Positions 1,075 to 62,774 of a stretch of 64,000 bases of DNA are shown in pieces. Numbering within the stretch: position 1 is the first letter of the stretch; every line of letters starts with the position of its first letter. Source of the stretch: Ailanthus altissimus (taxonomy: Eukaryota; Streptophyta; Magnoliopsida; Sapindales; Simaroubaceae). Where the stretch lies: the NCBI GenBank assembly GCA_946807835.1, contig OX327690.1, forward strand, positions 6,916,501 through 6,980,500. The letters are read 5' to 3'. The position numbers were made by a program, and so were the translations under genes. A model generated the notes under the pieces. The model was not told the DNA's origin. It was given only the letters and a program-made list of their open reading frames with translations, and searched no databases.

Positions 1075-1423
1075 TTTTTTTGTTTCTAAAATACATATGG
1101 AATCATTACAAAATAAGAGGAATTTTTCACCATAATACTTTTCCAATTTTTTTTTTATCATCCTTCACCTAAGCAACCAAATTATTCTTCATCCCAAATA
1201 ATGTCATTCCAAACAAAAATTAATCATTTCAAAATATCAATGAAAGTCCGTAAACTGTTATTTCAAGCATCTCCACTCATTCACAAAAGATATGTGAGTT
1301 TAGAAAAGAATATATATACTTAAATATGAAAATTTTCTTGGCTATATATATTGAATCATCCATCTTACCGCAAGACATAGTATTGTGCTCAAGAAATAAT
1401 TTTGAAAGTTATTCTTTAGTAAC
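443..1423. other. Non-coding AT-rich interval between polypurine tract and LOG pseudogene
   Basis: No coding signal was recognised. The interval contains an imperfect tandem duplication with a TA/TG microsatellite (listed separately). It lies inside the Athila-like element, downstream of the LOG pseudogene in the sense of both. Confidence 0.6.
903..1075. repeat. Imperfect tandem duplication, each copy ending in a microsatellite
   Basis: A segment of about 55 bp with TCTAGAATTAAACAAA and TTTATTGAAC at 903-956 is repeated at 984-1041. Each copy is followed by a simple repeat: (TA)n at 957-984, and (TA)n then (TG)n at 1042-1074. This looks like slippage or unequal exchange at the TA tract. Confidence 0.75.
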
Positions 1424-8719: not shown

Positions 8720-8742
8720 AAAAAAATTGCATAAAAGGGAAC

Positions 8743-10507
8743 CTATTTAATAACATCCAATAAAGGAATATTAACTTTTACCTGTTTGAAGATTTTAAAA
8801 TTTCCAGGATTGTGATTCATCTTCTTAGTGTTACGTAATGCATAAGGAAATAAGGGTAGAGATGAGGATTTAGTGTTTTCTTCATTAGATATAGGTTCAA
8901 CATTTTCCTTACCCTTAGAGATTGATTCATCATTCTCATGAGGTTCAAAAATATTTTTTTCAATAATTTTACCATTCCGAAGAGTGATAACCTCTTTAAC
9001 TTGATCCATGTGTTGGCTTCTTGAACTACATGCATTTGAATTATGTTGTCCTTTAGAGTTTGGTTGTGATTGAGAAGGAAATTTTTCTTTCTCATAAATG
9101 TTCAGTACGGATGCAAATTTAATAAGAGTATCTTTCAAATCAGCAAATGTTTGAACATTTTGAGAATTAATAGACTCTTGCTTTTCAATGAATGCATGAA
9201 AAGTTTTTTCAAGATTTTTTCTAAGAGGTGGGATATATGGTGCATAACCTTAGTGGTTTTGAAAATTTTGGTGCAATTGAAAAGGTGGTTGTGAAGCCTA
9301 TACTTGAGTGTCATTCCTCCAACTAAAATTCGAGTGATTTTTACATTCAGGATTGCAGTTTTGTGAATATGGGTTATTGTTTGACTGCTTGAACATGTTT
9401 AGAACATTGGCTTGTTCATGGAGACATTCCTTAAATGCAGGAAAAGTTGGGTAATCATTGGTAAAGTAATCCTAGGTTTCACAAATGTGACACACAATTT
9501 CTTGAACAGATTTTAATTGACCACTCTTTTTCATTTCTAAGGTTTCGAATTTTCTAGTTAGGGATGCTAATTTGGCTTGAAGGTCATGATCTTCCCTAAG
9601 ATGATAAATACCCCCACTAGATGTAGTGGTTTGATTTTTGCTAAGTGCCTCATAGGTACTAGCAATGTCCTAATTTTGAGCATTTTCTACTAGTAAGTCT
9701 AGATAGTTCATGGCCTCTTCTGGGTCTTTGTCCTCAAATATTCCATTACACATCATTTCTACCAATTGCCTAACTTGAGCTATTAAACCCTCATAGAAAT
9801 TTGAGACTATTCTCCATGTTTCAAAGCCATGATGGGGATAGATATTAAGTAATTCTTTATATCTTTTTCAGCATTAGTAAAGGGTCTCTCCTAGTTTTTG
9901 GAAAAAAAATGGTAATTTATCTTTTGAAAGAATTTGTTCTATGGGAAGGAAAAATGTTTTTCAGGAATTGTTATTGCTTCTCATCCCTTAAAGAAATTGT
10001 ATTCTGGCATAAGGTTTTGTAGCCATGTTTTAGCTTTATCTTTTAAAGAAAAGGGAAAACGCTTAAGTCGAATTGTGTTCATGCTACAATTTTGGTCATT
10101 ATACGTGTTATACACTTCTTCCAATTCTCTTAGATGTAGATAAGGGTTCTCTGCATTTATGTCGTGAAAAATAGGTAAAAGGTTAATAATGTCTGGCTTA
10201 AAATTAAAATGTGTTGCATCCGGAGGAAAAATTAAGCAAGATGGTGCACCAGTTCGTGTAGGGTTCATGTAATCTCTAAGTGTCCTAGGTCGATTATGGT
10301 CATTATGTTGAGGGTGATTTTTCCTGGGTCTATGAGTCCCTCAATTTTATTTTTGCTCATGGTGTTAATTAGTGAAGAATGAGAAGATGAAGGAGAATTT
10401 AACAAATTATCAAAGAAAGTTCTGAAATTACCTTTCACCAAATGATGAGAATTAGGATCTCGAAACCAACTGCTCATACAAAGAAATAAAATAAAATACA
10501 ATAACAA
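8743..10507 (-). pseudogene. Athila-like gag
   Basis: The capsid-type region at 10268-9981 contains LHLRELEEVYNTYN and LKRFPFSLKDKAKTWL, the conserved block of Athila/Tat gag proteins, which package the element RNA. Near 9500-9300 the minus strand encodes a cysteine-containing segment (CHIC) followed by NNNPYSQNCNPECKNHSNFSW, matching the zinc-binding tail of this clade. The 9138-8743 frame holds the linker towards protease, including EVITLRNGK. Frames shift between these blocks, and in-frame stops occur, so no complete gag is made. It lies 290 bp or more from the primer site at 10798-10815, the usual leader position. Confidence 0.82.
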
Positions 10508-10797
10508 TAAATATTACAAATAAGAGGGGAAAAAAGAAAATAAATAAAATATTAAATAAAGACAAATAAAATAGGCAAAACTAACAATAAAATAAATGTT
10601 AGATAAATAATTAGAAGTTAGATTAATAAATGTTAGATTAGTCAGTGTTAGATTATATAATAAAAAGTTAATAAATAAAGAGTAGGAGAGGCTTAGCCTT
10701 CCATGAAAATAAAAAGCGAGTAATAAATAAAGTAAAGTAAGTTATGAGGCTTAACTTTTCATAAAAATAAAATAAACAAAAAAATGTTAATTTCACT

Positions 10798-10815
10798 TCC
10801 CCGGCAACAGCGCTA
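10798..10815 (-). promoter_or_regulatory. Primer-binding site, tRNA-Asp type
   Basis: The plus strand here reads TCCCCGGCAACAGCGCTA, which matches the 3' end of plant tRNA-Asp (TCCCCGGCAACGGCGCCA) at 16 of 18 positions. The minus-strand element RNA would therefore pair with that tRNA to start reverse transcription. It lies six bases inside the 5' LTR boundary. Confidence 0.85.
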
Positions 10816-10821
10816 AAAACT

Positions 10822-12194
10822 TGACACGTCAAGAATATAGGAATTTATTCTCAAGTGCAGGATTGTCGAAGTAATAAATAATCTGGTGAGAACGGGGTCG
10901 ATCCACAGGAAAGTAGAATTAAAATTACAAATTATAAATACTTTAAAGACAATTAATGCAACATAAGATGTTTGTAAATATTAATTCAATTAACCAATTC
11001 GAATAAAAGCTAAGGTTAGGGGGATCCACTCTTAGCATAAGAAGTAAAAATATATTTAACTCTTTTTATAATTTAATTGGAATCCTCACACAAAGGAGGT
11101 TCCAACCGGAAGATATAACAATTAAAGTTCATCACCATTTATATATTAACTAATATTTATTTCTTTCAATTATTATACATCAAATCTTATAAATGGGTTC
11201 AAGTATTTATTATGACAATCTTTATATTTGTTTACAATAAATCAAGACTCCCACTTTACAAGAAATGGTATATACACCAAATCTTGTAAATGGTTTTAAG
11301 AATTTATTGTGTCAACTATAAAAATTATCTATAATAAATCAAGAGGTACCACTTTAAAAGAAAGTATATTAATATTACAAATAAAATAAATACATCATAT
11401 ATAAATTTTCATAACTTAATAATAAAGCATTAAATTCATAAATAATAGTTAAGTATATCTTATTACCTTGCCAAGAGTTTCACCATTTCACCTTAGCATA
11501 AAGAAAATTACTTGAACATAATAAAATTAAAGAAAAAGAAATGAAATAAAAAAAGAGATAACATGACTTTAGAATAATAAATAAGATAAATAAACATCCT
11601 TTGGGCTTAAACATACTACCTATTTATAAAAACATATGGATAAATCAAGACAAATGAAAAATGAACTACTTGGATGATAAAAGTTATGAATGGTGGCAAA
11701 TAATTTACATTGATTATCATTAATGTACTTACTTTATTATCCAATTTGGAATTGATGTGTTCCAAATTAGTTGTCACTCAAAACATCAAAGTTGTAGATA
11801 AGTCTTTTATATTTCTAAATTGAGTTGTCTCATATGTATTAGATACGTATTTCTATATTTATGGGTCAAATATTGATGACTATTCGGACTGGGCCTGTAC
11901 TGCATATTAGTTCTGTTCTAGGCCATTTTCACCCTCTAAAAGCTCGAATTTTAAATGTCTTATGAAATACAATATGTTACCCCATTGCGTCAGATCTTCC
12001 CAGGATTAAGAATCACTTTAATTTAGTTCTTAGGTAGAATGTTATGTCCATTTTACCGAACCTACCACAAAACAGTTAAAAGCTAATTAATTAAAATATT
12101 GTAAACATACTTAAGTTATGGGGGTTAAAGACACTAGTAATACAAAATAATGATATAAAACCCTTATTAAACATGTAATTTCAAGTGTTCATCA
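10822..12194 (-). repeat. 5' LTR of the Athila-like element (1373 bp)
   Basis: Boundaries are set by TGATGAACACTT at the upper end and ...CGTGTCA at the lower end, next to the primer site. The part at 11763-12194 is the mate of 1-431. The bases 12195-12199 (AGCAC) are the expected target duplication. Confidence 0.85.
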
Positions 12195-27989: not shown

Positions 27990-28181
27990 AAAAGTACTAT
28001 TATCTACAATATTAACAATCTTTGCAGCTCTTGGATAATGTGTCATCTTCACAAAATCATACAAAAATTTAAGTAAGATGTCAAACATTTACACAACCAA
28101 ACTACAAATACAATCTTAAGGATTTGGCATCTACTCAATCCCCTTAACTTGACACTTAAAAGTCTACAGAATCATATCTTA

Positions 28182-28193
28182 ACTCTGATACCA
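28182..28193 (-). promoter_or_regulatory. Primer-binding site, initiator tRNA-Met type
   Basis: The minus strand reads TGGTATCAGAGT, one mismatch from the initiator-Met complement, and lies eight bases inside the LTR end at 28202. Confidence 0.8.
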
Positions 28194-28201
28194 CTAAAAG
28201 C

Positions 28202-30860
28202 TGTCACGCCCTAGACCCAAAAGATCTGACACATGACATAACTTCACTCGTTCAATAATATGCATTCATAATTAATATTGCATAAAATTTCAAACTTAAA
28301 TTCAACATAAGAATCCTTAACAAGTTGCTAGTAAGTTCAACACAAAGTTCCACTCATGACTATACTTGGTGAAGTATAAACCAAATACAACCATACTCAA
28401 TAAAATAATACATATGTATTTATTTAGTAGCAAATCAAATATCTTAAACTACGTGTCCACAAATGAAACACTTAACAACCTAGCAACTTAGGGAACCCAA
28501 TAAACAGTAGAAGTCTTACCAAATTCACTCAGCACACATATACCTTATTTACTTGAAATCACCATAAACTATAATAAATATAAAACTCGGTAAGCATACT
28601 AATTTTTTATTTATCAAAATACAAATATATATATATATATGTACACAATGCATGTGTATGATATGTTGAATCAAAATCATAATTTTATCAAATCACATGT
28701 CAGGTAAGCGCTTACACATTCTTTCAAAATATATAATAGGAATACAATCACTCAACTACTACTTAGTAGGACTTTCATATCACATATCACATAATGAGCA
28801 AAATGTCACTCGTAAGTGACATACCGTATGAGAGAAATAGTACAAGTTAGGTTTACATTACACATATATAATGCTCATACCCGAAGATAAGATCCAAACT
28901 CTCACCTTAATCATCGATGAGTCCTCTCACACGCACCAATACGCCACCACACAAATATGATGACTCAATCTTCCTTTAGGTACCAATAGGATCCTCCCTA
29001 CATATAGAACGCATAACATATACCAATCCCGAAGGAAATGCCACACATAAAAGCTCCACAAATCACATAAAATGCCTACTAAGCCAACAGTGAGTTCAAG
29101 TACCCTCAAAACACAAAATATTTCTCATGGACATATTACACTTCAAAAGCTTTCTTTGTTAAACACATCTTATTTTGAATGCTCACTTAAAAAATACATG
29201 TATGTCCATGCTCAATGTCAATGCTCACATTCATAAATATATGTCTTTCACATTTCATATCAAATATACTTTGGCATAATATAAACATATTTCTAAGCAC
29301 ATTTATAAAATTATACATAGATAAATTACTATGTTTATTATGATTTCAGTAAAAGTCTAGTATATTTACCTTTTAACGCTTTCGGCTACAAGGCTTAATT
29401 CTCCATAACCTATCAATGAAGATTAATCCTTTCATAAGCCTCAATATTCATACAAAACACTTTAAATAGTTTACAAAATTACACATATTGCACTTATCAC
29501 ATCGAATTGGTCTAATTACTTGATCTCTCAAAACTTGTCATTCTGACCACTTACACTTAACAAAATTTTCTTATACATCAAATGATGTCCAATTACTCCA
29601 AAATCAAAATATATTATTCTTGACTCATATATCCTTCTTATGTATGAATATTATATCATAATTCTTACACAATTCATTCCATAAACATCATCAAATTCAA
29701 ACATTATCGTGATTGGATCAAGATATTTACTGAATAGTATTCAATATCCTAATTTTATAAAATCATATACTAACTCAAAAATTATAAAACTACCATAGAA
29801 TTATTCTTGACATATATCTCAATTCATGATAAATATTTCACTTCAAAATAATTGCCAAAAGTATTTCAAAACTATTTTATTCTATAACTTTAAAAATCTG
29901 TTAATCAAATACTACAATGAGCTAACACTCTTTAGAAAATCATAACAATTTAACCATATTGATCTAAATTCTCAATTCTGAGTATATTATATTAGACATA
30001 TAAACTTATCATATTCCATAAATTTATAATTTTTGAAGATTATTCAGCAGATCAAAAATTATTTGTCACTGTATCATACTGTAAACACAGGAAGTTTACA
30101 GAATTTTAGGGTCATTTTGGTAAATTTATTATAAATTCAATTTTTGAAATTTTCAATCGATTCAAAGTCTAAAATGATTCTAGATATATCTAATTTTATA
30201 TACTCAAAATTTAAAATCATAATCAAACCACAACAATTTATAAAAATTTTGGATCAAGAAACTATCAAGAAAAAATTCTACAATTCATCATGATTTATCA
30301 AGTTATCTACATAATCATCATCAATTCTCACAATATCTTACGAAATCCACATCAAGTCCTCAATTATACATATTTTCAGAAATCAAAACTTAAAGAAATT
30401 AACTTAATTAACACTAATAAAATGAAAAATAGTTATGATATACCTCTTAAAACTCCAAATTCCAATTTCTTCTTCTTCTTCTTCTTCTTCTTCTTCTTCT
30501 TCTTCTCTTTCTCTCCCCTCTATTTCTCTCCCCTCTATTTCTCTCGTTTCTCTCTCTAAAGTGGTGGATCGACCCAAAAATGAGTAAATTAGGATTTAAA
30601 ATGTATATTTTTATACTAAGAAGCTAACTTTTAATATTTACAAATTAACCCCAAAAAGTTTTAAAGTATTATAATTTGGTCCCTAAAATAAATCTAAAGT
30701 CTTACAAATAAACTCAATACTAATAGTATGTCCTTAATCTATACAAATAATACTAATAACAATACATAAATTTAGTATCATCCATATTTAAATAAAATAT
30801 GAATATTATACATATATATAAATATTTATTCTTTTGAGTGTTGGATAAGTGGTTACTACA
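28202..30860 (-). repeat. Tekay-like LTR, older copy
   Basis: It is the reverse complement of the LTR family at 39429-42153, with shared ends and the 12-base palindrome GTAAGCGCTTAC at 28704-28715. Clear divergence from the young copies indicates greater age. Confidence 0.85.
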
Positions 30861-37650: not shown

Positions 37651-39428
37651 TTTCATCTTTTCTTTAGCAAGATATAAGAAAAATTGAAAAAGAATGTTAT
37701 AATTAAATTAATGAAATATGATTATATAGAGAACCTTTTTTTTAATTTGAGTGTGTTTCATGGTGTAGAGGATATCTCTCTAATTCCACCACACCTTTAA
37801 AATACAAAGTTTTTTAAAATGATGATGCAGATGAGGTATTTCATTTCTCTGATAAGGAGAAAATTCTTGAGGGAAAACGTTGAGGAAAGTATGGAGGGAG
37901 CTGGTTCCTAACAACATCAAATTTAGTAAATGATGATATGGAGGAATACGAGTCTAATGATGATGATTTTCTAATTAGCTCTTCAAATGAGGAGGAAGAG
38001 GAGGTTTATAAGATGGCTAAGAAGGTTAATGAGAAGGTATGGGTAAAGAAACTCGAGGAGCAAATTTTCTTTGAAGAAGGGCATGTATTTGTTAACATTC
38101 AACAATTTAGAGATACACTAACAAAGCACATTGTTCAACTAAAGTTTACACCTAAAAGGGTGAAGAGTGAGCCTTTGAGAGCAACTATCACGTGTGCATT
38201 TGAGGGTCATCCTTTATGATTAAGAGTCATAATCCTAGCCATGCATGTTTAATAACCTCCAATACTGTTGAGAGAAATCACCATGACTTACAAAAGAGTT
38301 TGAAAGTTTAGTGAAGGCATTGCCAAAAATGAAAACTGAAGTTTTGGAACAAGAATTGTTATGTAAATATGGAGTTAGAGTTTATAGGCAAAGGATTTAT
38401 AGAGCTAAGAGGAAGGCTGTAGATATGATTGAAGAGGACTATGTTTAGTCCTATGCTAACCTACATAAGTATGTACACATGGTTCTGAATTGTAACCCTA
38501 ATGCAGTTGGCCTAATAACATCAAAAATGGTAGCCTCTGTTGGTAGGACCAGCACTGATTTTATACCTACAATCTTAACTTTCAAGAGATTTTTCTTAGC
38601 CTTTCCAGCACAAAAATTGAATTTCTTGGGTGGTTGTAGGCCTTTCATAGGTTTAGATGGTTGTCACCTAAAAGAGAAGTATAATAGAGTACTATTTTCT
38701 GTTGTGGCCTTAAATGCCAATAATGAAATATTTCAATTAGCAATATTTATTTGTGAGGTTGATTATATAGAGAGTTGGGGGTTTTTCTTAGAAAGATTGT
38801 ATCATTTGATTGAATATGAGAAAAATAGGTATGTCACATTCATAACTGATAAACAGAAGGGGTAGGTTGATGCCTTGGCAGTATACTGGCCAAATTCACA
38901 AACTAGGTGGTATGTTAGGCATATATATGATAATTTTAGAACTAAATAGTTTAGTATATAGTTGAAAAACTTATTCAAGTCTGCTACTAGAGAGTGACAA
39001 ATATTAGTTTAAAAAAATTTTGAAAAGTGTAAAAGCTATTTAGGTTGAGGCATATGATTGGCTTAGCAAACTGTTGTCTAATAAATGGTCTAGGCATGGG
39101 TTTAAAGCAGATGTGAAATGTGACCATGTCAAAAACAATTTCAGTTAGGCATTTAATAATTGGTTATTAAGTGAGAGAAAAATGCCAACCTTGACCATAC
39201 TAGAGCACTATAGAAAGAAGGTAATGGTTAGAATTCAAGAGAGGTTTCACATGAACAAGCTTAGGAAACAAACATATCACCTGTTGCCAAAAAGTAGATG
39301 GATAAATTGAGTGAGTATGGTTGGGCATTGAGGATTCTCAATGCTAAAAATGGTTTTTTTTATTTTAGATATTAGATTCTAAAAGAACATATTTAATTGA
39401 TATGAATACCCAAACATGTGAGTGATAT

Positions 39429-42153
39429 TGTAGTAACCAGTATTCATAACCGGTAAGAATATGTATATTTATATATATAAATATACGTATTTTATTTGTA
39501 TGTGGGTGATCCTTGATTTATATATTGTTATTAGTAGTGTTTTTATAGGTTAAGGATATACTATTAGTATTGAGTTTATTTGCAAGACTTTGGAATTATT
39601 TTAGGGACCAAATTGTTATACTTTGAAAGTTTTGGGGGTGAATTCGTAAATACTAAAAATTAACCACTTAGTATAAAAATACACTTTTAAAAACCCTAAT
39701 TCTCTCATTTTTGTCGAGCTACCCATTTTTAGAGAGAGAAGAGAGAAATAAAGGAGAGAGAAAGAGAAGAAGAAGAAGAAAAAGAAGAAGAAATTGGAAT
39801 TTTGGATCTTTAGAGGTATATCACAACTAATTATCAATTTATTGGTGTTAATTAAGTTAATTTCTTTAAGTTTTGATTTCTGGAAATATGTATAATTAAG
39901 GATTTGATGTGTATTTCGTTTGATGTTGTGAGAATTGATGATGATCTATAAGATAGTTTGATAAATCATGATGAATTATGAAATTTCTGCTGGATAACCT
40001 CTTGATCTAGGAATTTTATAAATTGTTGTGATTCGATTCTGGTTTTGAATTTTGAGTATATGAAATTAGACATGTTTAGGATCATCTGAGACTTTGAATC
40101 GACTGAAAATCTCGGAAATTGAATTTGTAGTGAATTTACCAAAATGACCCTGGAATTCTGGAAATTTCCTGTGTAAACAGTATGATACAGTGGAAAATAA
40201 TTTTTGACCTGCTGAATGATCTTTAAAAATTATGAATTTGTGGCATATGATAATTTTATATGTCTAATATGATATACTCGGAATTGAGAATTTGGATCAA
40301 TGTGGTTGAAGTGTTATGAATTTCTAAAGTGTATCAGCTCATTGTAGTATTTGATTAACAGATTTTTAAAGTTATGAAATAAAATAGTTTTAAAATACTT
40401 TTGTCAGTTATTTGGAAGCCAAATATTTATCATGGACTGAGATATATGTCAAGAGTAATTATGTGGTAGTTTTATAATTTTTGAGTTAGTATATGATTTT
40501 ATAAAATTGGGAGATTGAATACTGTTCAGTAAGTATCTTGATCCTGTCAGGTTTGTAGTTTGGATTCGATGGTGTGTATGGAATGAATTGTGTAGGAATT
40601 TTGATATAATATTCATATATAAGAAGTATATATGAGTCAAGAATGATATATTCTGATTTCGGAGTAATTGGACATCATTTGATGTATTAGAAATTTTTGT
40701 TAAGTGTAAGTGGTCAGAATGACAGGTTTTGAGAAACCAAATATTTAGACCAATTTGATGTGATAAATGCATTGTGTATAATTTTGTAAGCTATTTAAAG
40801 TATTTTGTGTGAATTGTGAGGCTTATGAAAGGATTAATCTCCATTGATAGGTTAAGGAGATTTAAGCCTTGTAGCTGAAAGTGTTAAGAGGTAAGTATAC
40901 TAGACTTACTACTGGAATCACAATAAACATAATTATTGTTTTGTATGATTTTGTAAATGGGGTTAAGAATATGTTTATGATATGTCAAAGTATATTTTGA
41001 TATGAAATGTGAATATATGTTTATGAATGTGAGCATTGACATTGAGCATGGACATACATGTGTTTTTTGAAAGTGAGCTTTCCAAAATAAGATGCGTTTA
41101 ACAAAGAAAGCTTTTGAAGTGTAATATGTCCATGAGAAATATTTTGTGATTTGAGGGTACTTGAACTCACTGTTAACTTAGTAGGCATTTTATGTGATTT
41201 GTGGAGCCTTTATATGTGGCCTTTCCTTCGGGATTGGTATATGTTATGTGTTCCGTATGTAGGGAGGATCCTATTGGTACCTAAAGGAAGTGTGAGTCAT
41301 CACATTCGTGTGGTGGCGTATTGGTACATGTGAGAGGACTCACCGATGATCAGGGTGAGGGTTTGGCTTTTACCTTCTGGCATAAGCGTTATATATGTGT
41401 GATTTAAAGACCTCACTTGTATTATTCCTCTCATACGGTATGTCACCTACGAGTGACATTTGGCTCATTATGTGATATGTGATATGTAAGTCCTACTAAG
41501 TAGTAGTCGAGTAATGGTATTCCTATTATGTGTTTTGAAAGAATGTGTAAGCGCTTACATGATATGTGATTTGATAAGATTATGATTTTGATTGATCACA
41601 GCATATCATACATATGCATTGTGTACATATATGTATTTGTATTGATATATGAAAAACTAGTATGCTTACTGAGTTTTATACTCATTATAGTTTATGGTGA
41701 TTTCAGGTAAATAAGGTACATGTGTGCTTAGCGGATTTGGCAAGGCTTCTGCTGTTCCTTGGGTTCCCTAAGTTGTTAGGTTGCTAAGTGTTTCATTTGG
41801 GGACACGTAGGATATGATATTTGATTTGTCCCTATTGAATAAATACTTATGTATTATTTTATTGTGTGTGGATTGAATTTGGTTTAAGTTTTATAAAGCG
41901 TGGTTATTGGATGATTTTAAGTAAGAATTTTGCAATGAATATATTCTGGGCTCCCGGTAACAAAGTTGCTACTGGTGACGTAGTAGAGTGTTTATCTCTG
42001 AGAAAACTCTGCGTATCTCCGGTTTACTAATTGTCCCAGTCATAATTCAATTGCTATAATTCTGAAAGAAATTAAAATGAATGTGCTTAAAAATATTATT
42101 GAATGAATGTAAGTGATGTCGCGTGTCGGATCTTTTGGGTCTGGGGCGTGACA
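39429..42153 (+). repeat. 5' LTR of the young Tekay-like element
   Basis: It begins TGTAGTAACCAGTATTC and ends GGGGCGTGACA. It contains a GAA-rich tract (39766-39793), a stem-forming TGTCACCTACGAGTGACA (41441-41458) and the palindrome GTAAGCGCTTAC (41547-41558). Short open frames in it recur identically in the other LTR and are not genes. Confidence 0.93.
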
Positions 42154-42161
42154 GCTTTTAT

Positions 42162-42173
42162 TGGTATCAGAGC
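42162..42173 (+). promoter_or_regulatory. Primer-binding site, initiator tRNA-Met
   Basis: TGGTATCAGAGC, the exact complement of the 3' end of plant initiator tRNA-Met, eight bases after the 5' LTR. Confidence 0.9.
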
Positions 42174-42538
42174 TAAGATATGATTCTGTAGACTTTTAAG
42201 TGTCGAGTCAAGGGAACCGAGCAGATGCCAAATCCTTAGGATTGTATTTGTAGCTTTTTTGTGTAAAAGTTTGACATATTCCTTAAATTTTGTATGATTT
42301 TGTGAAGATGACACATTATCCAAGAGCTGCTAAGATTGTTGTTGTTGTGGATAATGGTACCTTGTGGATCTTAATGTTACCATTTAGATTTTCTTTTAAG
42401 TTATGACTAATATGCTTAGTAAGAGTGATGTTGAATATCTTATAATGATAATTTGCATGTGATAGAGCAAATTGAGATAATTTTCTCAATGACAAAATAT
42501 AGAGAAGTAGAGTATTGAAGACATCAATTGAAACAACT

Positions 42539-42544
42539 TTTATT
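42539..42544 (-). terminator. Poly(A) signal AATAAA of LOG
   Basis: AATAAA on the minus strand about 47 bases after the LOG stop codon. The context and distance suit a plant near-upstream element, but the motif is short and common in AT-rich DNA. Confidence 0.45.
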
Positions 42545-42590
42545 GAAAAGGAAAACAACAACAATAGCAGCAACAATAATACAGTAGAGG

Positions 42591-43244
42591 CTACGGAGTG
42601 AGATTTAAGTCTATTTTACGCTTCTTCTGACTGTCATAAGTAGACCAGTCTAACTGATGCAATGTTGGATTAGACAGAGGAATAAAAGACTGCAATTGAT
42701 CAATCAGTTGATCAGCAGTTGGAGCAGAAATAAGAATCCGTCGTGCTAGAAGTGGGATGAATTGTGTTCCCGCTGCATAGTCAAGAAAAGATATCAACCC
42801 GTCGTAAAAACCATTAACATTTAACAAACCAATGGGTTTTTGGTGGATTTGTAATTGTGCCCATGAGACAATTTGAAAAATTTCCTCCAAGGTCCCAAAA
42901 CCTCCTGGTAAAGCTATGAAGGCATCTGCATGCCTAAGCATTTGAGCCATTCGCTCATGCATAGATGAGACTTGTAACTCATCCCCAACTGTTTTTCCTA
43001 CAATATTTTCAATAGCTAGAGGTTTTGGAATGATACCCAAAACTCGACTACCTTTATTGTATGCAGCTTTTGCCACAGACCCCATTAACCCTCGGTTACC
43101 TCCTCCATATACTAAATGTATATTTCGCTCAGCTAATACCTTACCAAGATTTTCTGCAACTTTTGTAAACTCTTCAGTATTCCCAGGGTTAGATCCACAA
43201 AAGACACAAATTTTTGTAAATCGACGAGCTGAGGTTTCCTCCAT
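42591..43244 (-). CDS. LOG: Intact LOG: cytokinin riboside 5'-monophosphate phosphoribohydrolase, intronless, inside a retrotransposon
   Basis: A 217-residue protein from ATG at 43244 to TAG at 42593-42591. LOG enzymes act in the cytosol and hydrolyse cytokinin riboside 5'-monophosphates to active free bases and ribose 5-phosphate. Signature blocks are complete: KICVFCGSNPG (residues 11-21), VYGGGNRGLMG (45-55), SRVLGIIPK, the MHERM arginine (98) and PGGFGTLEE (113-121). Length is normal for the family. The reading frame extends four codons upstream only through a GTG, so ATG at 43244 is preferred; the pseudogene copy has ATG at the same point. Plant LOG genes usually have several introns; this one has none. 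A TATA box lies about 60 bp upstream and AATAAA about 47 bp downstream. It is antisense to the host element, in place of gag-pol. Function is likely if transcribed; a retroposed ancestor is inferred. Confidence 0.93.
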   Translation of the reverse strand: MEETSARRFTKICVFCGSNPGNTEEFTKVAENLGKVLAERNIHLVYGGGNRGLMGSVAKAAYNKGSRVLGIIPKPLAIENIVGKTVGDELQVSSMHERMAQMLRHADAFIALPGGFGTLEEIFQIVSWAQLQIHQKPIGLLNVNGFYDGLISFLDYAAGTQFIPLLARRILISAPTADQLIDQLQSFIPLSNPTLHQLDWSTYDSQKKRKIDLNLTP

Positions 43245-43303
43245 TGTTATGCTCACCCCAATCTTTGAATATTTTTGAGTTTGTATAAGGATGCAATAAT
43301 AAT

Positions 43304-43313
43304 GTATTTATAG
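43304..43313 (-). promoter_or_regulatory. TATA box of LOG
   Basis: The minus strand reads CTCTATAAATACA (43302-43315 region), about 60 bases before the ATG, a canonical plant TATA box and spacing. The equivalent position upstream of the LOG pseudogene reads CTCTATAAAGACA, so the promoter is shared by descent. Confidence 0.75.
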
Positions 43314-43843
43314 AGAAACAAATTGATAATAGCTGTGGAACATATGTGTAAGTATGTTCAAGTATATATTTTTCTCGATTCTTGTGAGGTAAAAAAAAAA
43401 AAAAAAAAAAGAATGAGTTTTACTTTATCATTTTATAAGGGACAATAGGTCACAAAATCTTGAATAAATATATGTTGATATGTAAGTGTGATAAAAATTG
43501 TGTCGGAAGTGTGATAAGTTAGGTAAGATAATTAAGAAAAGTCAATAAAGGCCTATTTCATGGATTTAGGGACTTAGCCATTTTGGCACTAATGGTCGAC
43601 AATACATCAATGACTTGAAGACTTTTTGAGCTAACAATTGGACTTTGGACATGAGGCCAAATTAACTTTATTAATTACAAAGATTTTGTGGTCTTAACAT
43701 TAATTTTTGGCCGATAGATTAAAAGCAGATATGAAGAAAGATAAAGCATACTTGACATAAAGATAAAGCAGTAATCAGTCTCTCTTTGATGTGATAGAGC
43801 AACACGGATCTAGTTTCTGTGAAAATAGAAACAGCAATGTAGG

Positions 43844-45037
43844 TCAAAATGAGTCTCCTTGGTCGCTTTCATCTGTGTCGTATCCGTGAGAGAGGAACTT
43901 ATGAAGTTGTTGTTCCCATACATTGAATGAGGGCTCTGGCGGAGTGGAATGTGGGTCTACCATATCTTGATCTTCTCCAGGTGAGCTGGTCTGGATGAGG
44001 GATGTGCTGGCTTCCTCTTGGATTTGGGTGTCGGTTGGATAAGGTTGGGAGTCTTGAAAGAGGGATAAGTCAAGATTGGGTTGGTGTTGGTCAAGTTCTG
44101 TCGGGACAACTGGCTGAGATTGAGTAGGTTCTGTCGGGACAACTGACTGAGATTGGGTAGGTTCTGTCAGGACAGTTAGCTGAGGCCATTGGTGAAGGTT
44201 ATCCATTGCTTGTCTGTACCTGGCATAATAAGTCATGTTTGGGATATGGTGATGGTGGGTAGAGTAATCTGTATTTCTATGATGAGAAAGATGATGTTTT
44301 TGTCTTTGTCGGGATTTGTGTAGATTGGCAGAATTCAATTCTTCTGCAAAGTCATCTTCAACCTGTTCCCAAGGTGCAGCATCTTTTGGGGAGATCCAAA
44401 CAGACGGAGGAATTATCTGGTTTTCTTGAGCAAGAATTCTTTCAAGTTCTCTCTTTTGCTGGATTACTTCTTCAGGCCAGAGCTTAATTGATCCCTTTAG
44501 TGAAAGGGTAAATGTGAAGTAATCCTTAACAGTAGGGTAATAATGAATCTCGTGATCGGAAATAATCATACCCTTCCGTTGGAGAAGTAAGACTGACCAA
44601 AGATGTTGTCTGGGGACTGCAGCATTTGTGTTGTTTGCAATCATGTATTGAAATTTATTTATCCACCATGTCTTTGGGTAAAACCATTGGAGAAAAATCA
44701 GGGCTGGATGATCTTCATCACATTTTTCTAATTTTTGGAGGGTTCTAAGTAATGGGAATTCCATGGCGATTGTATACAGATCCAACAGGTACCATAACAA
44801 GTAAAGGACAGGTTTGGACCATTGGGAAAATGGGAAAAAAGAGTGCAGGTGAAAGAAAGGGTATTCTAAGTTGAACAAAGGGCCACCAAGAACTGTGAGG
44901 CCGTGTTCTTGTACTGCTAAGATGGCGTAGTGTCTGATGAATTCTTTGGCACGGGAATGGAGTGTTCTGGTTTTGATTAGGTCTGGAAATTGTGGTGGAG
45001 AAAAAGGAACAGGAGGAGTTATGATAATGGGATTCAT
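43844..45037 (-). CDS. Intact 397-residue antisense ORF of unknown function in the young retrotransposon
   Basis: It starts at ATG 45037 and stops at 43844. I do not recognise the family. Residues 1-220 look globular and are rich in Trp, Tyr, Phe and Leu (WFYPKTWWINKFQY, HLWSVLLLQRKG). Residues 225-270 are charged and His-rich. A PTEPTQSQ unit is repeated two to three times near 290-320, followed by a Gln/Pro/Ser/Thr-rich acidic tail ending DTDESDQGDSF. There is no signal peptide or clear membrane helix. A canonical TATA box lies about 62 bp upstream and AATAAA at 43667-43672, so it looks like a complete transcription unit. The open frame of nearly 1.2 kb in AT-rich DNA argues for selection until recently. 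Candidates are a captured host gene, or an extra antisense ORF of the kind known in some plant LTR elements. Confidence 0.75.
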   Translation of the reverse strand: MNPIIITPPVPFSPPQFPDLIKTRTLHSRAKEFIRHYAILAVQEHGLTVLGGPLFNLEYPFFHLHSFFPFSQWSKPVLYLLWYLLDLYTIAMEFPLLRTLQKLEKCDEDHPALIFLQWFYPKTWWINKFQYMIANNTNAAVPRQHLWSVLLLQRKGMIISDHEIHYYPTVKDYFTFTLSLKGSIKLWPEEVIQQKRELERILAQENQIIPPSVWISPKDAAPWEQVEDDFAEELNSANLHKSRQRQKHHLSHHRNTDYSTHHHHIPNMTYYARYRQAMDNLHQWPQLTVLTEPTQSQSVVPTEPTQSQPVVPTELDQHQPNLDLSLFQDSQPYPTDTQIQEEASTSLIQTSSPGEDQDMVDPHSTPPEPSFNVWEQQLHKFLSHGYDTDESDQGDSF

Positions 45038-45098
45038 TATGAAGATGGTAAGAAGGTTGGTTTTATTTATTGCTAGAAAAGTGATTATGAGGTTTAGG

Positions 45099-45108
45099 CT
45101 ATTTATAG
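45099..45108 (-). promoter_or_regulatory. TATA box of the 397-residue ORF
   Basis: The minus strand reads CTCTATAAATAGCC at 45110-45097, a textbook plant TATA box about 62-70 bases before the ATG at 45037. Confidence 0.75.
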
Positions 45109-45110
45109 AG

Positions 45111-45983
45111 TTTTATGAAAGAAAATCAATAATCGTTTTGTCCTTTCCTTTTACGTGGATGACGTTAAAGGAATAGTTAAAAGAATCATATTTGCCATCG
45201 CAGTAATTGTGCTAGTAGAATCTTTTCTATTTGAAATCGAGCATATTAGAAAAAGCAGACATGTCAATCTCAATGAGAAAATGATGTCCAATAAGGTGGA
45301 CTATTTTTTTTTTTAGAGTTAAAGTAAGAGATATAATGTTAAGATCTATAGTTTAAGAATCAGTTGAACTAAAGGTCTTTTTATTGAAGTTGATTTTTGA
45401 TCGTTTAAGATAATGCTTTCAATATTCTGATTTGAATGACAACTTAGTTGCGTAGAAATACTATATATTTTTTTTTTAATGATATCAAGGTAGTGAATGA
45501 TATTATGACGTATGAGTATATGTTGAAGGGATTAAAATTTTTAGAGGAGTTAAGAATTTTATGTAAGAGATTAGTATGGGTATTCTACATCTATGTTATT
45601 CTTTAATGAATGAAAGGTGAAGTGTATAGATACCCATTAAATATTGAACGAATGGAAAAAAAAAAAAAAGAATAAAAATATGTGTGTATAATTTTATAAG
45701 TCCATAATGTGTGTCATATGTTTATTTTATGGATATATGTTTCGTACTCCTCTCGTATACTCAGCTATGAGCCAACTTAGAGATAATCTAACATATGAAT
45801 GAGTATTTATTAGGATTTTGGACCACAATGAGCAAATCCTATATACAAGGAAGATTGCTTTGTAAATGTTTTATGAATAAACTATACGGTTGAAAAGGAA
45901 AATTGAGAATGAGAAGAAGAAATGAGATCTAAGTATCCTCATCTATGTGCTTAAGTTATGAATTTCGAGGACGAAATTCTTAT
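45111..45983. other. Interior remnant of the Tekay-like element before the 3' LTR
   Basis: AT-rich, no long frame. The last 35 bases match the usual end of Tekay-type pol (GAATTTCGAGGACGAAATTC). Upstream of it I see no chromodomain or integrase. This stretch presumably includes upstream DNA acquired with the 397-codon ORF. Confidence 0.55.
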
Positions 45984-45996
45984 AAGGAGGGGAGAA
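45984..45996 (+). promoter_or_regulatory. Polypurine tract of the young element
   Basis: AAGGAGGGGAGAA directly before the 3' LTR start at 45998; it primes plus-strand synthesis. Confidence 0.85.
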
Positions 45997-45997
45997 T

Positions 45998-48722
45998 TGT
46001 AGTAACCAGTATTCATAACCGGTAAGAATATGTATATTTATATATATAAATATACGTATTTTATTTGTATGTGGGTGATCCTTGATTTATATATTGTTAT
46101 TAGTAGTGTTTTTATAGGTTAAGGATATACTATTAGTATTGAGTTTATTTGCAAGACTTTGGAATTATTTTAGGGACCAAATTGTTATACTTTGAAAGTT
46201 TTGGGGGTGAATTCGTAAATACTAAAAATTAACCACTTAGTATAAAAATACACTTTTAAAAACCCTAATTCTCTCATTTTTGTCGAGCTACCCATTTTTA
46301 GAGAGAGAAGAGAGAAATAAAGGAGAGAGAAAGAGAAGAAGAAGAAGAAAAAGAAGAAGAAATTGGAATTTTGGATCTTTAGAGGTATATCACAACTAAT
46401 TATCAATTTATTGGTGTTAATTAAGTTAATTTCTTTAAGTTTTGATTTCTGGAAATATGTATAATTAAGGATTTGATGTGTATTTCGTTTGATGTTGTGA
46501 GAATTGATGATGATCTATAAGATAGTTTGATAAATCATGATGAATTATGAAATTTCTGCTGGATAACCTCTTGATCTAGGAATTTTATAAATTGTTGTGA
46601 TTCGATTCTGGTTTTGAATTTTGAGTATATGAAATTAGACATGTTTAGGATCATCTGAGACTTTGAATCGACTGAAAATCTCGGAAATTGAATTTGTAGT
46701 GAATTTACCAAAATGACCCTGGAATTCTGGAAATTTCCTGTGTAAACAGTATGATACAGTGGAAAATAATTTTTGACCTGCTGAATGATCTTTAAAAATT
46801 ATGAATTTGTGGCATATGATAATTTTATATGTCTAATATGATATACTCGGAATTGAGAATTTGGATCAATGTGGTTGAAGTGTTATGAATTTCTAAAGTG
46901 TATCAGCTCATTGTAGTATTTGATTAACAGATTTTTAAAGTTATGAAATAAAATAGTTTTAAAATACTTTTGTCAGTTATTTGGAAGCCAAATATTTATC
47001 ATGGACTGAGATATATGTCAAGAGTAATTATGTGGTAGTTTTATAATTTTTGAGTTAGTATATGATTTTATAAAATTGGGAGATTGAATACTGTTCAGTA
47101 AGTATCTTGATCCTGTCAGGTTTGTAGTTTGGATTCGATGGTGTGTATGGAATGAATTGTGTAGGAATTTTGATATAATATTCATATATAAGAAGTATAT
47201 ATGAGTCAAGAATGATATATTCTGATTTCGGAGTAATTGGACATCATTTGATGTATTAGAAATTTTTGTTAAGTGTAAGTGGTCAGAATGACAGGTTTTG
47301 AGAAACCAAATATTTAGACCAATTTGATGTGATAAATGCATTGTGTATAATTTTGTAAGCTATTTAAAGTATTTTGTGTGAATTGTGAGGCTTATGAAAG
47401 GATTAATCTCCATTGATAGGTTAAGGAGATTTAAGCCTTGTAGCTGAAAGTGTTAAGAGGTAAGTATACTAGACTTACTACTGGAATCACAATAAACATA
47501 ATTATTGTTTTGTATGATTTTGTAAATGGGGTTAAGAATATGTTTATGATATGTCAAAGTATATTTTGATATGAAATGTGAATATATGTTTATGAATGTG
47601 AGCATTGACATTGAGCATGGACATACATGTGTTTTTTGAAAGTGAGCTTTCCAAAATAAGATGCGTTTAACAAAGAAAGCTTTTGAAGTGTAATATGTCC
47701 ATGAGAAATATTTTGTGATTTGAGGGTACTTGAACTCACTGTTAACTTAGTAGGCATTTTATGTGATTTGTGGAGCCTTTATATGTGGCCTTTCCTTCGG
47801 GATTGGTATATGTTATGTGTTCCGTATGTAGGGAGGATCCTATTGGTACCTAAAGGAAGTGTGAGTCATCACATTCGTGTGGTGGCGTATTGGTACATGT
47901 GAGAGGACTCACCGATGATCAGGGTGAGGGTTTGGCTTTTACCTTCTGGCATAAGCGTTATATATGTGTGATTTAAAGACCTCACTTGTATTATTCCTCT
48001 CATACGGTATGTCACCTACGAGTGACATTTGGCTCATTATGTGATATGTGATATGTAAGTCCTACTAAGTAGTAGTCGAGTAATGGTATTCCTATTATGT
48101 GTTTTGAAAGAATGTGTAAGCGCTTACATGATATGTGATTTGATAAGATTATGATTTTGATTGATCACAGCATATCATACATATGCATTGTGTACATATA
48201 TGTATTTGTATTGATATATGAAAAACTAGTATGCTTACTGAGTTTTATACTCATTATAGTTTATGGTGATTTCAGGTAAATAAGGTACATGTGTGCTTAG
48301 CGGATTTGGCAAGGCTTCTGCTGTTCCTTGGGTTCCCTAAGTTGTTAGGTTGCTAAGTGTTTCATTTGGGGACACGTAGGATATGATATTTGATTTGTCC
48401 CTATTGAATAAATACTTATGTATTATTTTATTGTGTGTGGATTGAATTTGGTTTAAGTTTTATAAAGCGTGGTTATTGGATGATTTTAAGTAAGAATTTT
48501 GCAATGAATATATTCTGGGCTCCCGGTAACAAAGTTGCTACTGGTGACGTAGTAGAGTGTTTATCTCTGAGAAAACTCTGCGTATCTCCGGTTTACTAAT
48601 TGTCCCAGTCATAATTCAATTGCTATAATTCTGAAAGAAATTAAAATGAATGTGCTTAAAAATATTATTGAATGAATGTAAGTGATGTCGCGTGTCGGAT
48701 CTTTTGGGTCTGGGGCGTGACA
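45998..48722 (+). repeat. 3' LTR of the young Tekay-like element
   Basis: It is the copy of 39429-42153 at a constant offset of 6569 bases, with the same length and no difference seen. It is followed by GATAT, the second target duplication. Confidence 0.93.
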
Positions 48723-49889
48723 GATATGGATGACAGACAAGTAGTATACCATGCAAGCATGCCATAAGAGTTATCATTTATTTGAGAGCTGACCCTGTAA
48801 TATATATTGACAAAGCACCATATAAAAGTGCTTTTTTGAGGACTTATGAGGGCATGATTAGGCCCATTTTAGAGAGATGTGCATGAGATAATGTGAACTT
48901 ACCTACCTTAAACCCCCCCAACCAACAAATTAAAAGATTTGTTAGAAGACCTAAGTTGGTTAGAAGGTGGGAGACTAGTAAACCAGCCAAGGTGCAAAGA
49001 TCTTTTGTGGTAAAATACAACAAATGTGGGAAATTTGGACATAATTTCAGAACTTGTAGAGAGAAAATGTAGTTTAAAGAGTTTGTAAATTACACTCCAT
49101 ATTGTTTAATATTTAGTGACATTGTTTATTACTTTTTCTTAGTAATAATTATGCATCTCATTTATAATTCAGGAAGCATTTTTAGTTAGAAAAAGTTTAT
49201 CTCATGCTGCTACAAGAGAGATGCATTCTAATGCTATGGTATGCACGAAGCATAAACTTAAAAATATCTTATTACCTAAATCTGCAAGCATTTTTTTTAA
49301 TTTATATATTTTTCTTTATTTTGCAGGGAAGGGCATCAAGCAATAAACAAGGTTCCACGTCAGCCAATACTCATACTGCAACAGTTGGAAGTGGAGTGTC
49401 AAGTAAAGCATTTTATTTGTCTTATAATATATAAAATTTTGGATATATAAAATGATGAAATATTACACAACATCAATTCTAATATATAAAATGCTTTATT
49501 TTTAGGATATAGACGAAGGGAAAGGCCTAGAAGGCCTAAGAAACATCAGAGAGTCTGATTTTAGAGCTCATAAAGAAAATGTAAGTTGGATGAGGTTTCT
49601 AACTGTATTTTTTAAAATGATTTCATTATTATTGGTTATTGAGATATTTTGTAAGAATGATGATGCATAGGTTAGCATAGAATTATATCAGTTTACCATA
49701 ATTTTACTTTATTACATTTTGAAATTTTAGTCAATTTAACATTAGTTTATCTTTAATGAATTACATCTTTCACTTATAACTTTCATGTCATTTTTTGCTT
49801 GTACATTACAACACAATAATTACTATAACAACCAATAAAATACGATACATATTTTTTCATTAGACGTTTCATTTCATCAATTTGATTGG

Positions 49890-60244: not shown

Positions 60245-62774
60245 TGTCACGCCCCAGACTCAAAAGATCTGACATACGACATAACTTACACTCATTCAAT
60301 AATGTGCACTTATAATTAATATTACATAAAATTTCAAACTTAAATTCAACATAGGAATCCTCAACAAGTTTCTAATAAGTTCAACACAAAATTTCACCCA
60401 TGACTATACGTAGTGAAATATAAACTAAATACAACCACATCTAATAAAATAATATATAAGTATTTATTTAATAGGGACAAATCAAATATCTTAAACCATG
60501 TGTTCACAAATGAAACACTCAGCAACCTAGCAACTTAGAGAATCCAAAGGACAGCAGAAGCCTTGCTAAATCTGCTAAGCACACATGTACATTATTTATT
60601 TAAAATTATCATAAACTATAATGAGTATAAAATTCAGTAAGTACACTAATTTTTTATATATCAAAATACAAATACATATATATACACAATGCATATGTAT
60701 GATATGCCGTGATAAATCAAAATCATAATCTTATCAATTCACATGCCAGGTAAGCGCTTACATATTCTTTCAAAACATATAATAGGAATATCATTACTTA
60801 ACTACTAGTTAGTAGGACTTTCATATCACATATCATATGATGAGCCAAATGTCACCCGTCGATGATATACCATATGAGAGGAATAGTATAAATAAGATTT
60901 AAATTACACATATATAACGCTCATAATCGAAAGTAAGAGCCGAACCCTCACCCTAATCATCGGTGAGTCCTTTCACATGCACCAACACGTCACCACACGA
61001 ATGTGATAACTCACTTTTCCTTTAGGTACAAATAGGATCCTCCCTACATACGGAACATATAACATATACCAATCCCAAAGAAAAAGTCACACATAAAGGC
61101 TTCACAAATCACATAAGGTGCATACTAAGTAAATAGTGAGTTCAAGCATCCTTAAAACACAAAACGTATCTTATGGACATTTTTCACTTCAAAAAATTTC
61201 TTTATTAAACACATTTCATTTTAAAAGCTTATTTTCATAAAAACATGTTTGTCCACACTCAATGTCAATACTCACATTCATAAACATATGTCTTTCACAT
61301 TTCATATCAAATATACTTTGGCATAACATAAACACATTTCTAAGCACATTTATAAAATTATACATAAATAATTACCATATTTATTGTGATTTTAGTAAAA
61401 GTCTAGTATACTTACCTCTTAATACTTTCGAGTACAAGGTTTAATTCTTTTTAACCTATCAGTGGAGATTAATTCTTTCATAAGCCTCACCATTTACACA
61501 AAATACTTTAAATAGCTTACAAAATTACACATATTGTACTTATTTCATTGAATTGGTCTAATGACTTGGTTTCTCAAAACTTGTCATTCTAACCACTTAT
61601 ACTTAATAAAATTTTCTTATACATCAAATGATGTCTAATTACTCCAAAACAAGAATATATCATTCTTAACTCATACATCTTTCTTATATATGAATATCGT
61701 ATCATAATTCCTACATAATCTATTTCATAAACACCATCAAATCTAAACTATTATCCTGACAGGATCAAGATATTTACTAAACAGTATTCAATCTCCCAAT
61801 TTTATAAAATCATATACTAACTCAAAAAGTTATAAAACTACCATAGAATTACTCTTGACACATATCTCAATTCAAGATAAATGTTTCACTTCAAAACTAT
61901 TTTATTTCATAGCTTTAAAAATTTGTTAATCAAATACTACAATGAGCTGATACATTTTAGAAAATCATAATAATTTAATCAAATTGATAAAAATTCTCAA
62001 TTTTGAATATATTATATTCGACATATAAATTTATCATATTCCAAAAATTCGTAATTTTTTAAGATCATTCAGAAGATCAAAAATTATTTGTCACTATAAT
62101 ATATTGTTAACATAGGAAATTTTCAGAATTTTAGGGTCATTTTTGTAAATTTATTAAAAATTCAATTTCTAAAATTTTCAATCGATTCAAAGTCTCAAAT
62201 GATTCTAGACATGTCTAGTTTCATATTCTTAAAATTCAAAACCAGAATCAAAGTACAACAATTTATAAAATTCTCGAATCAAGAGATTATCAAGTATAAA
62301 TTCTGCAAATTCATCATAATTTATCAAGTTATCTACATAATCATCATTAATTCTCAATATATCTTACAAAATCAACATCAAGTCCTCAATTTTACATATT
62401 TTCAAAAATTAAAACTTAAAGAAATTAATTTAATTAACACCAATAAATTGAGAAAGAGTTATGATGTACCTCTTAGAGCCTAAAATTTTACCAAAAAATG
62501 AGTGAATTATGGTTTAAAATGTGTATTTTTATACTAAGAGGCTAACTTTTAGTATTTACGAATTAACCCCTAAAACTTTTAAAGTATTACAATTCGGTCC
62601 TTAAAATAAATTTAAAGTCTTGCAAATAAACGCAATACTAATAGTAGGTCTTTAATCTATACAAATAATACTAATAACAGTACATAAATTAAGTATCATC
62701 CACATACAAATAAAATATGAATATTATATATATAAGTACTTATTCTTATTGGTTGTGGATAAGTGGTTATTACA
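60245..62774 (-). mobile_element. Solo LTR of the Tekay-like family, inside satellite B
   Basis: 2530 bp, reading on the minus strand from TGTAATAACC to GGGGCGTGACA, with perfect TATTA duplications at 60240-60244 and 62775-62779. It is closely similar to the LTR of the young element, including the palindrome GTAAGCGCTTAC at 60750-60761, but with many substitutions and small deletions. No internal sequence is present, so an LTR-LTR recombination product. Confidence 0.9.

What the first reader, a model, noticed from the sequence alone, without database searches (positions are those of the whole stretch)
39429..48722. A very recently inserted non-autonomous retrotransposon carries an intact cytokinin-activating LOG gene
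Seen: perfect GATAT duplication, two 2725-bp LTRs without visible difference, intact primer site and polypurine tract, no gag or pol, and a full LOG ORF with all signature motifs, TATA box and AATAAA, antisense to the element. Known: plant LTR elements occasionally capture gene fragments, but intact genes with their own promoter are rare. Inference: each transposition would add a dose of a hormone-activating enzyme. If the family is multicopy, this would be a mobile cytokinin-activation cassette.
Basis: partly seen in the sequence, partly recalled or inferred. Interest (0 to 1): 0.92.

Follow-up and report, generated by a model that had tools for sequence, protein, structure and literature searches.

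The report
Mobile, selected LOG gene in retrotransposons
A plant jumping element that cannot move by itself carries an intact-looking gene for a plant-hormone-activating enzyme, exists in roughly nine hundred copies in its genome, and shows signs that selection kept that gene working, so the gene looks like a real part of the element rather than a chance passenger.

Summary
The element is real: 39429-48722, two identical 2725-bp LTRs, GATAT duplication, primer site, polypurine tract, no gag or pol found, and an antisense 217-aa LOG ORF.

The source genome (939 Mb) holds 916 sites of a LOG marker and 870 of the LOG/ORF397 spacer; reversed controls 0. In 29 other copies picked by ORF397, LOG lies at the same antisense place in 29 and is intact in 24.

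Changes shared among copies are strongly purified in LOG (omega 0.15-0.22); changes private to one copy are weakly constrained to neutral (0.5-1.2 by method). So LOG was kept working along lineages that spread.

It is not a fresh host capture. A second, diverged LOG family (150 places scored) exists; the one copy read sits in sense behind pol and shares TATA and poly(A) stretches. The 120 nearest relatives mostly (100) end in an EAR-type motif; 0 of 120 LOG1/LOG3-type LOGs do.

LOG/YgdH in Gypsy elements of Citrus and Populus is in print. Enzyme activity, transcription and benefit are untested.

The parts
39424..39428 (.). target site duplication GATAT, left
39429..42153 (+). 5' LTR, 2725 bp, TG...CA
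42162..42173 (+). primer binding site TGGTATCAGAGC (initiator-Met type, recalled)
   Evidence: read
42154..42363 (+). 210-bp leader and gag-like start, 89% alike in the related LTR element at 28201-27991
42540..42547 (-). poly(A) signal of LOG (CAATAAAA), also present in LOG2 of L069
42591..43244 (-). LOG1: 217-aa LONELY GUY-type ORF, antisense to the element; C-terminus KKRKIDLNLTP (basic + DLNxxP)
43301..43315 (-). LOG1 TATA box CTCTATAAATACATT, no variation in 30 copies
43844..45037 (-). ORF397: 397-aa ORF without known family, antisense, shared variants under purifying selection
45097..45110 (-). ORF397 TATA box CTCTATAAATAGCC
45984..45996 (+). polypurine tract AAGGAGGGGAGAA
45998..48722 (+). 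3' LTR, identical to the 5' LTR
48723..48727 (.). target site duplication GATAT, right
1..12194 (-). older Ty3/gypsy element (Athila-like by recall), cut by the window's edge: 3' LTR <1-431, purine tract 432-442, 5' LTR beginning at 12194, decayed RT, RNase H and integrase pieces at 8413-6692
1433..4866 (-). LOG2 pseudogene inside that element, same strand, split by a foreign stretch 1969-4751 with TG...CA ends (solo-LTR-like)
27991..30860 (-). related LTR (86%) plus 210 bp of leader; a diverged relative of the same element
60245..62774 (-). second related, LTR-only copy (about 85%)

Best explanation
The finding is one very young copy of a large non-autonomous LTR-retrotransposon family (about 900 marker sites) whose interior is a two-gene antisense cassette: a LOG-type enzyme gene and ORF397, each behind its own TATA box. 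SHOWN: marker counts, fixed position and orientation of LOG in the copies read, recent activity of the four copies dated, purifying selection on LOG and ORF397 in variants shared by several copies, weaker or no constraint on private LOG variants, and a second LOG family of which one copy carries LOG in sense behind pol. INFERRED: LOG is a resident gene of a retroelement gene lineage that was exchanged, promoter and poly(A) signal included, between two element families. INFERRED mechanism: mobilised in trans by an element with matching LTRs and leader, the family expresses LOG from its own promoter; LOG turns cytokinin nucleotides into active cytokinin in the same cell, favouring division or meristem residence of cells in which the element is active. 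Since plant germ cells come from meristems, this would raise the chance that new insertions are inherited.
For: Copies: 916 LOG-marker and 870 spacer-marker sites, reversed controls 0. LOG at the same place and orientation in 29 of 29 other loci picked by ORF397, intact in 24; ORF397 in 28 of 29 other loci picked by LOG, 20 without stop in the part held. Selection: LOG shared variants N13:S25, private N42:S15, Fisher p 2.6e-4 (29 copies); against the mutation spectrum of the neighbouring spacer, LOG shared omega 0.22 (p 3.6e-6), private 1.19 (p 0.57); ORF397 shared 0.20 (p 1.1e-5); the two wrong frames of LOG and of ORF397 show no such deficit. LOG TATA box invariant in 30 copies. Activity: LTR pairs 0/2725, 0/2656, 4/2656, 6/2750. 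Exchange: TATA and AATAAA stretches alike in LOG1 and the pol-linked LOG2, dN 0.155, dS 0.49-0.52. Meristem role of LOGs: PMC3866579 (passages).
Against: No transcript, protein or enzyme data. The copies read were those scoring best against a query, so the fraction of intact LOGs among all 900 sites is unknown. The contrast varies with method: a tree count gives terminal omega 0.52 against internal 0.16 (p 0.0025), so private changes are not strictly neutral there; in the sample picked by LOG itself shared and private do not differ (p 0.33); for ORF397 residues 105-397 the Fisher test (p 0.22) and tree count (p 0.65) are not significant. One search used all 30 loci, broken ones included, which can swell private non-synonymous counts (77:23 there, 42:15). 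TATA conservation is modest: 3% of noncoding 15-mers are as invariant (LOG), 16% for ORF397. The benefit could be to the host. No mobilising partner was identified. A product acting in trans helps all copies in the cell, so selection on the element needs a cell-lineage or cis effect, which is not shown.
Confidence: 0.7

Rival explanations
1. Passenger: an old non-autonomous element that happens to hold a LOG copy, amplified by its LTRs; the ORFs look intact only because the family is young.
For: The four LTR pairs read are 0-0.2% apart; private LOG variants are weakly constrained or neutral; ORF397 alone does not reach significance in two of the tests.
Against: Shared variants are strongly purified in the true frame of both ORFs and not in the other frames; LOG and most ORF397 frames stay open across subfamilies 5-15% apart in ORF397; LOG1 and LOG2 differ with dN/dS about 0.3.
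Confidence: 0.12
2. Host benefit: a few copies serve the plant as extra LOG genes and act as source copies, so selection on LOG is selection on the host.
For: Also predicts low omega in shared variants and weaker constraint on private ones; LOGs regulate meristems (PMC3866579, passages).
Against: Selection also appears on ORF397, for which one near-identical relative and no other homologue was found; the same LOG clade forms a second family, pol-linked in the copy read.
Confidence: 0.15
3. Changed function: the C-terminal basic patch and EAR-type motif make this LOG a nuclear protein that recruits TOPLESS-type co-repressors, for instance to alter silencing of the element; the enzyme fold is kept for binding or local cytokinin chemistry.
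For: 100 of the 120 closest relatives end in LxLxL or DLNxxP and 102 of 120 have three basic residues near the end; 0 of 120 LOG1/LOG3-type LOGs have either there, 6 have the pattern elsewhere; tail kept in 56 of the 56 rows that reach residue 217, of 58 loci. EAR patterns as defined in PMC6283911 (passages).
Against: Motif match only; short pattern; the active-site motif is kept, which points to catalysis. Several Xanthoceras members stop before the motif.
Confidence: 0.25
4. Assembly artefact: collapsed or duplicated LTRs, or LOG misplaced.
For: Identical LTRs are a known assembly hazard (recalled).
Against: Places on 32 contigs carry the genes, with private differences in the copies read; spacer and LOG markers keep distance and orientation at 33 of 36 exact spacer sites of C1.
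Confidence: 0.02

Closest known systems
YgdH (LOG-type) domain in Ty3/gypsy consensus elements of Citrus sinensis, C. clementina and Populus trichocarpa (PMC9289625, section 12 read whole; it cites Steinbauerova et al. 2011, not held)
   Same: LOG-type domain inside plant Gypsy LTR elements, repeated in several consensuses.
   Different: That screen started from RT-bearing regions, so a family without pol would be missed. The section read reports no antisense two-gene cassette, selection test, C-terminal motif or copy number for it. Steinbauerova 2011 could not be read and may say more.
Antisense additional ORFs of plant LTR elements, e.g. Grande, RIRE2, Retand TRP28 (PMC7264820, part 1 of 3 of its main section; PMC11963269, passages)
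   Same: Antisense ORFs kept in most copies of a family.
   Different: Those lie between pol and the 3' LTR of pol-bearing elements and mostly carry TRP28 or other DNA-related domains; no LOG was named in what I saw. Here no pol was found and one ORF is a LOG.
2-ODD (m6A demethylase) domain in Phalaenopsis Gypsy elements (PMC9289625, section 12)
   Same: A cellular enzyme domain held by a repeated plant Gypsy family.
   Different: Different enzyme; found in RT-bearing consensuses.
LARD-type large non-autonomous retrotransposon derivatives (recalled)
   Same: Long LTRs, primer site, purine tract, no gag or pol found, many copies.
   Different: LARD interiors are described as non-coding; this one holds two ORFs under selection.
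Ordinary plant LOG enzymes (LOG1/LOG3 type)
   Same: PF03641, PGGxGTxxE motif, similar length.
   Different: 45-50% identity to the four tested, separate group in the tree, basic plus EAR-type tail.

Membership tests
LTR retrotransposon | two LTRs with TG...CA, TSD, PBS, PPT | tested here: met
LTR retrotransposon | gag and pol (autonomy) | tested here: not met
   no such frame found in 39429-48722 (13 small frames not scanned)
LARD | multicopy, long LTRs, no gag-pol | tested here: met
LARD | non-coding interior (recalled definition) | tested here: not met
   two ORFs with purified shared variants
LOG / cytokinin phosphoribohydrolase | PF03641 domain and PGGxGTxxE | tested here: met
LOG / cytokinin phosphoribohydrolase | releases active cytokinin from its nucleotide | not testable with these tools
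   no assay; PMC11593424 reports that close LOGs differ in product (passages)
LOG / cytokinin phosphoribohydrolase | falls inside the group of ordinary LOG1/LOG3 genes | tested here: not met
   separate groups, FastTree support 0.94 and 1.0, midpoint-rooted tree with 117 of 120 LOG1-like, 37 ordinary LOGs (every third of 120, three dropped for length) and AtLOG8
EAR-motif protein | LxLxL or DLNxxP | tested here: met
EAR-motif protein | binds TOPLESS or SAP18 | not testable with these tools
   none
Antisense aORF of plant Gypsy elements | antisense ORF kept in most copies | tested here: met
   (copies picked by score)
Antisense aORF of plant Gypsy elements | between pol and 3' LTR | tested here: not met
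   no pol found
Athila-type Ty3/gypsy (for the LOG2 carrier) | PR-RT-RNase H-integrase order | tested here: met
   L069, (its 5' part is other sequence)
Athila-type Ty3/gypsy (for the LOG2 carrier) | RT phylogenetic placement in Athila | not tested
   name by recall of RT and gag motifs only

The most novel reading that the evidence does not exclude
A hormone-activating enzyme has become a resident, selected gene of plant retrotransposons: a distinct LOG clade, with its own promoter, terminator and a nuclear-repressor-type tail, lives in and moves between different LTR-element families, and spreads because it biases the fate of the cells in which the element is active (a selfish meristem drive).
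Probability: 0.3. Interest if true: 0.92.

Novelty: new variant of a known kind. Interest (0 to 1): 0.76.

Why it matters
Genes carried by plant retrotransposons are often read as dead fragments or accidents. Here counts within one genome separate changes that spread from changes that did not, and say that a LOG-type enzyme and an unknown partner gene were kept working by whatever spread. That makes a question testable: can a retrotransposon profit from altering host hormone state? It also warns that LOG family counts in plant genomes may mix host genes with element genes: published counts are 7, 9 and 13 in peach, Arabidopsis and poplar (PMC3866579, passages), against some 900 marker sites here.

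Tried and rejected
Fresh capture from a host LOG: rejected, because LOG1 is 45-50% identical to four ordinary LOGs, 73% to pol-linked LOG2, and shares regulatory flanks with LOG2. Assembly artefact: rejected for the family. ORF397 identity: no Pfam match up to E 1, no PDB sequence match up to E 10, one 96% relative only, none in viral contigs; the AlphaFold2 model from two sequences is useless (mean pLDDT 33.5), so no fold search was made. Mobilising partner: the 210-bp leader search of the genome did not complete. LOG2 copy count by pattern: not completed. Print: the searches led to one paper on LOG-type domains in LTR elements; the lists were capped (20 of 30, 25 of 82, 10 of 232) and one search failed.
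Full report
OBSERVATION. The element is as described. LTRs 39429-42153 and 45998-48722 are identical over 2725 bp, flanked by GATAT, with a TGGTATCAGAGC primer site and a purine tract. LOG is an uninterrupted 217-aa ORF on the minus strand, PF03641 E 9.4e-40, with PGGFGTLEE matching the PGGxGTxxE motif. Gag and pol were not found: LOG and ORF397 are the only frames of 120 aa or more, ten smaller frames have no Pfam match (13 others not scanned), and pol proteins of L069 do not match the element.

MULTICOPY. The source genome has 939 Mb in 37 contigs; 40 LTR copies at 97-100% were scored of 6311 candidates (39 further short matches ignored). ORF397 gave 104 scored places of 2658 candidates, all over 397 residues, 98 without stop. 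LOG gave 150 scored places of 6213 candidates, all 217 of 217, 97-100% identity, 147 without stop. These lists hold only the best-scoring places; together they touch 32 contigs. Whole counts come from patterns with up to 3 mismatches: 870 sites of a 28-base spacer marker and 916 of a 28-base LOG marker, reversed controls 0. On contig C1, 33 of 36 exact spacer sites have an exact LOG marker 624-644 bp away, on the other strand. Ten pairs among the 150 LOG places lie 6.45-6.71 kb apart in the same orientation (my reading), as expected of tandem arrays sharing LTRs.

LOG AND ORF397 TRAVEL TOGETHER. In 29 loci other than the window's copy picked by ORF397, LOG is present in 29 at the same place and antisense orientation; 24 are intact. 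Of the other five, L022 and L027 carry a stop, L011 a frame break, L025 a stop and a truncated match, and in L033 the match lacks the last residue. In 29 other loci picked by LOG, ORF397 is present in 28 (L040 is the exception), 85-95% identical, 20 of them without stop in the part held. At least two of these loci are the same places as two of the first set (L020/L059, L029/L048), so the pooled 58 rows hold at most 56 places.

AGE. Four LTR pairs differ at 0 of 2725, 0 of 2656, 4 of 2656 and 6 of 2750 sites. These four copies are very young.

SELECTION. Changes seen in one copy only are mostly younger than that insertion; changes seen in several copies passed through copies that went on to transpose. 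In 29 copies with full-length LOG alignment (three of the ORF397-picked loci dropped: L011, L025, L033; two LTR-picked loci, L005 and L006, added), shared changes are N13:S25 (omega 0.16) and private ones N42, 4 of them stops:S15 (0.84), Fisher p 2.6e-4. Pooled with the LOG-picked loci (58 rows): 0.15 and 0.74, p 6.5e-5. In the LOG-picked loci alone (30 rows): 0.09 and 0.20, p 0.33; picking by LOG score must lower the private class. A tree-based count on 30 copies gives internal 0.16 and terminal 0.52, p 0.0025. With the mutation spectrum of the 411-bp spacer as yardstick and all 30 loci L009-L038, broken LOGs included, LOG shared omega is 0.22 (15:24, p 3.6e-6), private 1.19 (77:23, p 0.57); ORF397 shared 0.20 (11:20, p 1.1e-5), private 0.55 (42:28, p 0.015; these loci were picked by ORF397). 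The wrong frames show no deficit of non-synonymous shared changes. Against this, for ORF397 residues 105-397 the shared/private Fisher test (p 0.22) and the tree count (p 0.65) are not significant. Nucleotide diversity at LOG codon positions 1, 2, 3 is 0.015, 0.005, 0.035 over all copies and 0.024, 0.014, 0.042 in L009-L038. Changes are not independent events, so p-values are guides.

PROMOTERS. The LOG TATA stretch is invariant in 30 copies, as low as 3% of noncoding 15-mers; for ORF397 the figure is 16%. Suggestive only.

A SECOND LOG FAMILY. The window also holds a LOG2 pseudogene (4866-1433, minus) inside an older element whose LTR parts in the window are 88% alike, with decayed RT, RNase H and integrase. 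A query with its close relative P0005 found 150 scored places of 6307 candidates at 92-95%; by my count 118 of the 150 rows show at most one stop. In the one copy read (L069) that stop is the natural end; for the rest this is inferred. L069 has open PR, RT-RNase H and integrase frames, then LOG2 in sense, then a purine tract and LTR; its 5' part is other sequence. LOG1 and LOG2 share 73% of residues, dN 0.155, dS 0.49-0.52, and alike stretches from the TATA box through the poly(A) signal. A Xanthoceras protein (P0003) joins LOG sequence to a 44-residue stretch 55% identical to the gag-side ORF of the window's LOG2 element, a hint that the same pairing exists there; annotation may have joined distant exons.

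A DISTINCT LOG CLADE. The 120 listed nearest relatives of LOG1 (of 7905 hits) include many from Reevesia, Xanthoceras, Populus and Paulownia, several in large clusters. Of these, 100 of 120 end in LxLxL or DLNxxP within the last 12 residues and 102 of 120 have three basic residues in the last 20; among the 120 listed nearest relatives of Arabidopsis LOG3 (of 7990), 0 of 120 have either there, and 6 have the pattern elsewhere. The comparison covers LOG1/LOG3-type genes, not all LOG groups. LOG1 ends KKRKIDLNLTP, kept in 56 of the 56 rows that reach residue 217, of 58 loci. Whether the relatives in other plants sit in elements was not tested.

MECHANISM. Shown: copy number, recent insertion, selection. 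Inferred: mobilisation in trans; antisense expression; enzyme activity; benefit. My preferred account is a cell-lineage advantage through local cytokinin activation. The EAR-type tail suggests a nuclear side that I cannot test.

KNOWN WORK. PMC9289625 (section 12 read whole) reports YgdH, the LOG domain, in Gypsy consensuses of two Citrus species and, without its filter, Populus, in line with Steinbauerova 2011, which is not held. So LOG in Gypsy elements is known; the pol-less antisense cassette, its partner ORF, the selection signal and the tail were not found in what the searches showed. Lineage names (Athila-like, initiator-Met primer, LARD) are recalled.

Noticed in passing
L069:6324-6665 (+): Between integrase and LOG2 lies a frame with a marginal match to PF05515 Viral_NABP (23.4 bits, cut-off 23), including a CxxC...C cluster; possibly a nucleic-acid-binding accessory gene.
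   Followed up: no
window 1969-4751: A 2.8-kb stretch with TG...CA ends splits the LOG2 pseudogene, flanked by CAGCT/CAGTT: looks like a solo LTR.
   Followed up: partly
own genome, e.g. C10:18789693-18805584, C21:16537054-16552898: Three LTR hits at equal spacing and orientation, and ten pairs among 150 LOG places at 6.45-6.71 kb: tandem arrays sharing LTRs.
   Followed up: partly
window 55530-59950 and 62774-64000: Two tandem-repeat arrays (self-matches about 72-85% alike), the second directly at the end of the related LTR.
   Followed up: no
window 25331-26816 (-): Frames resembling a class III peroxidase gene in pieces, about 1.2 kb from the leader of the related LTR element (name by recall).
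   Followed up: no
window 14122-15443 and 19809-21162: Direct repeats up to 86% alike, perhaps LTRs of another element; a transposase-like frame at 22051-21378 beside them (recalled resemblance to MULE transposase).
   Followed up: no
window 17774-17436 (-): A second, more diverged protease stretch (37% to the L069 protease), so remains of another Ty3/gypsy element.
   Followed up: no
P0003, P0004, P0006 (Xanthoceras sorbifolium): Annotated proteins with repeated or fused LOG pieces, one joined to a retroelement gag-side stretch: perhaps element genes annotated as host genes.
   Followed up: partly
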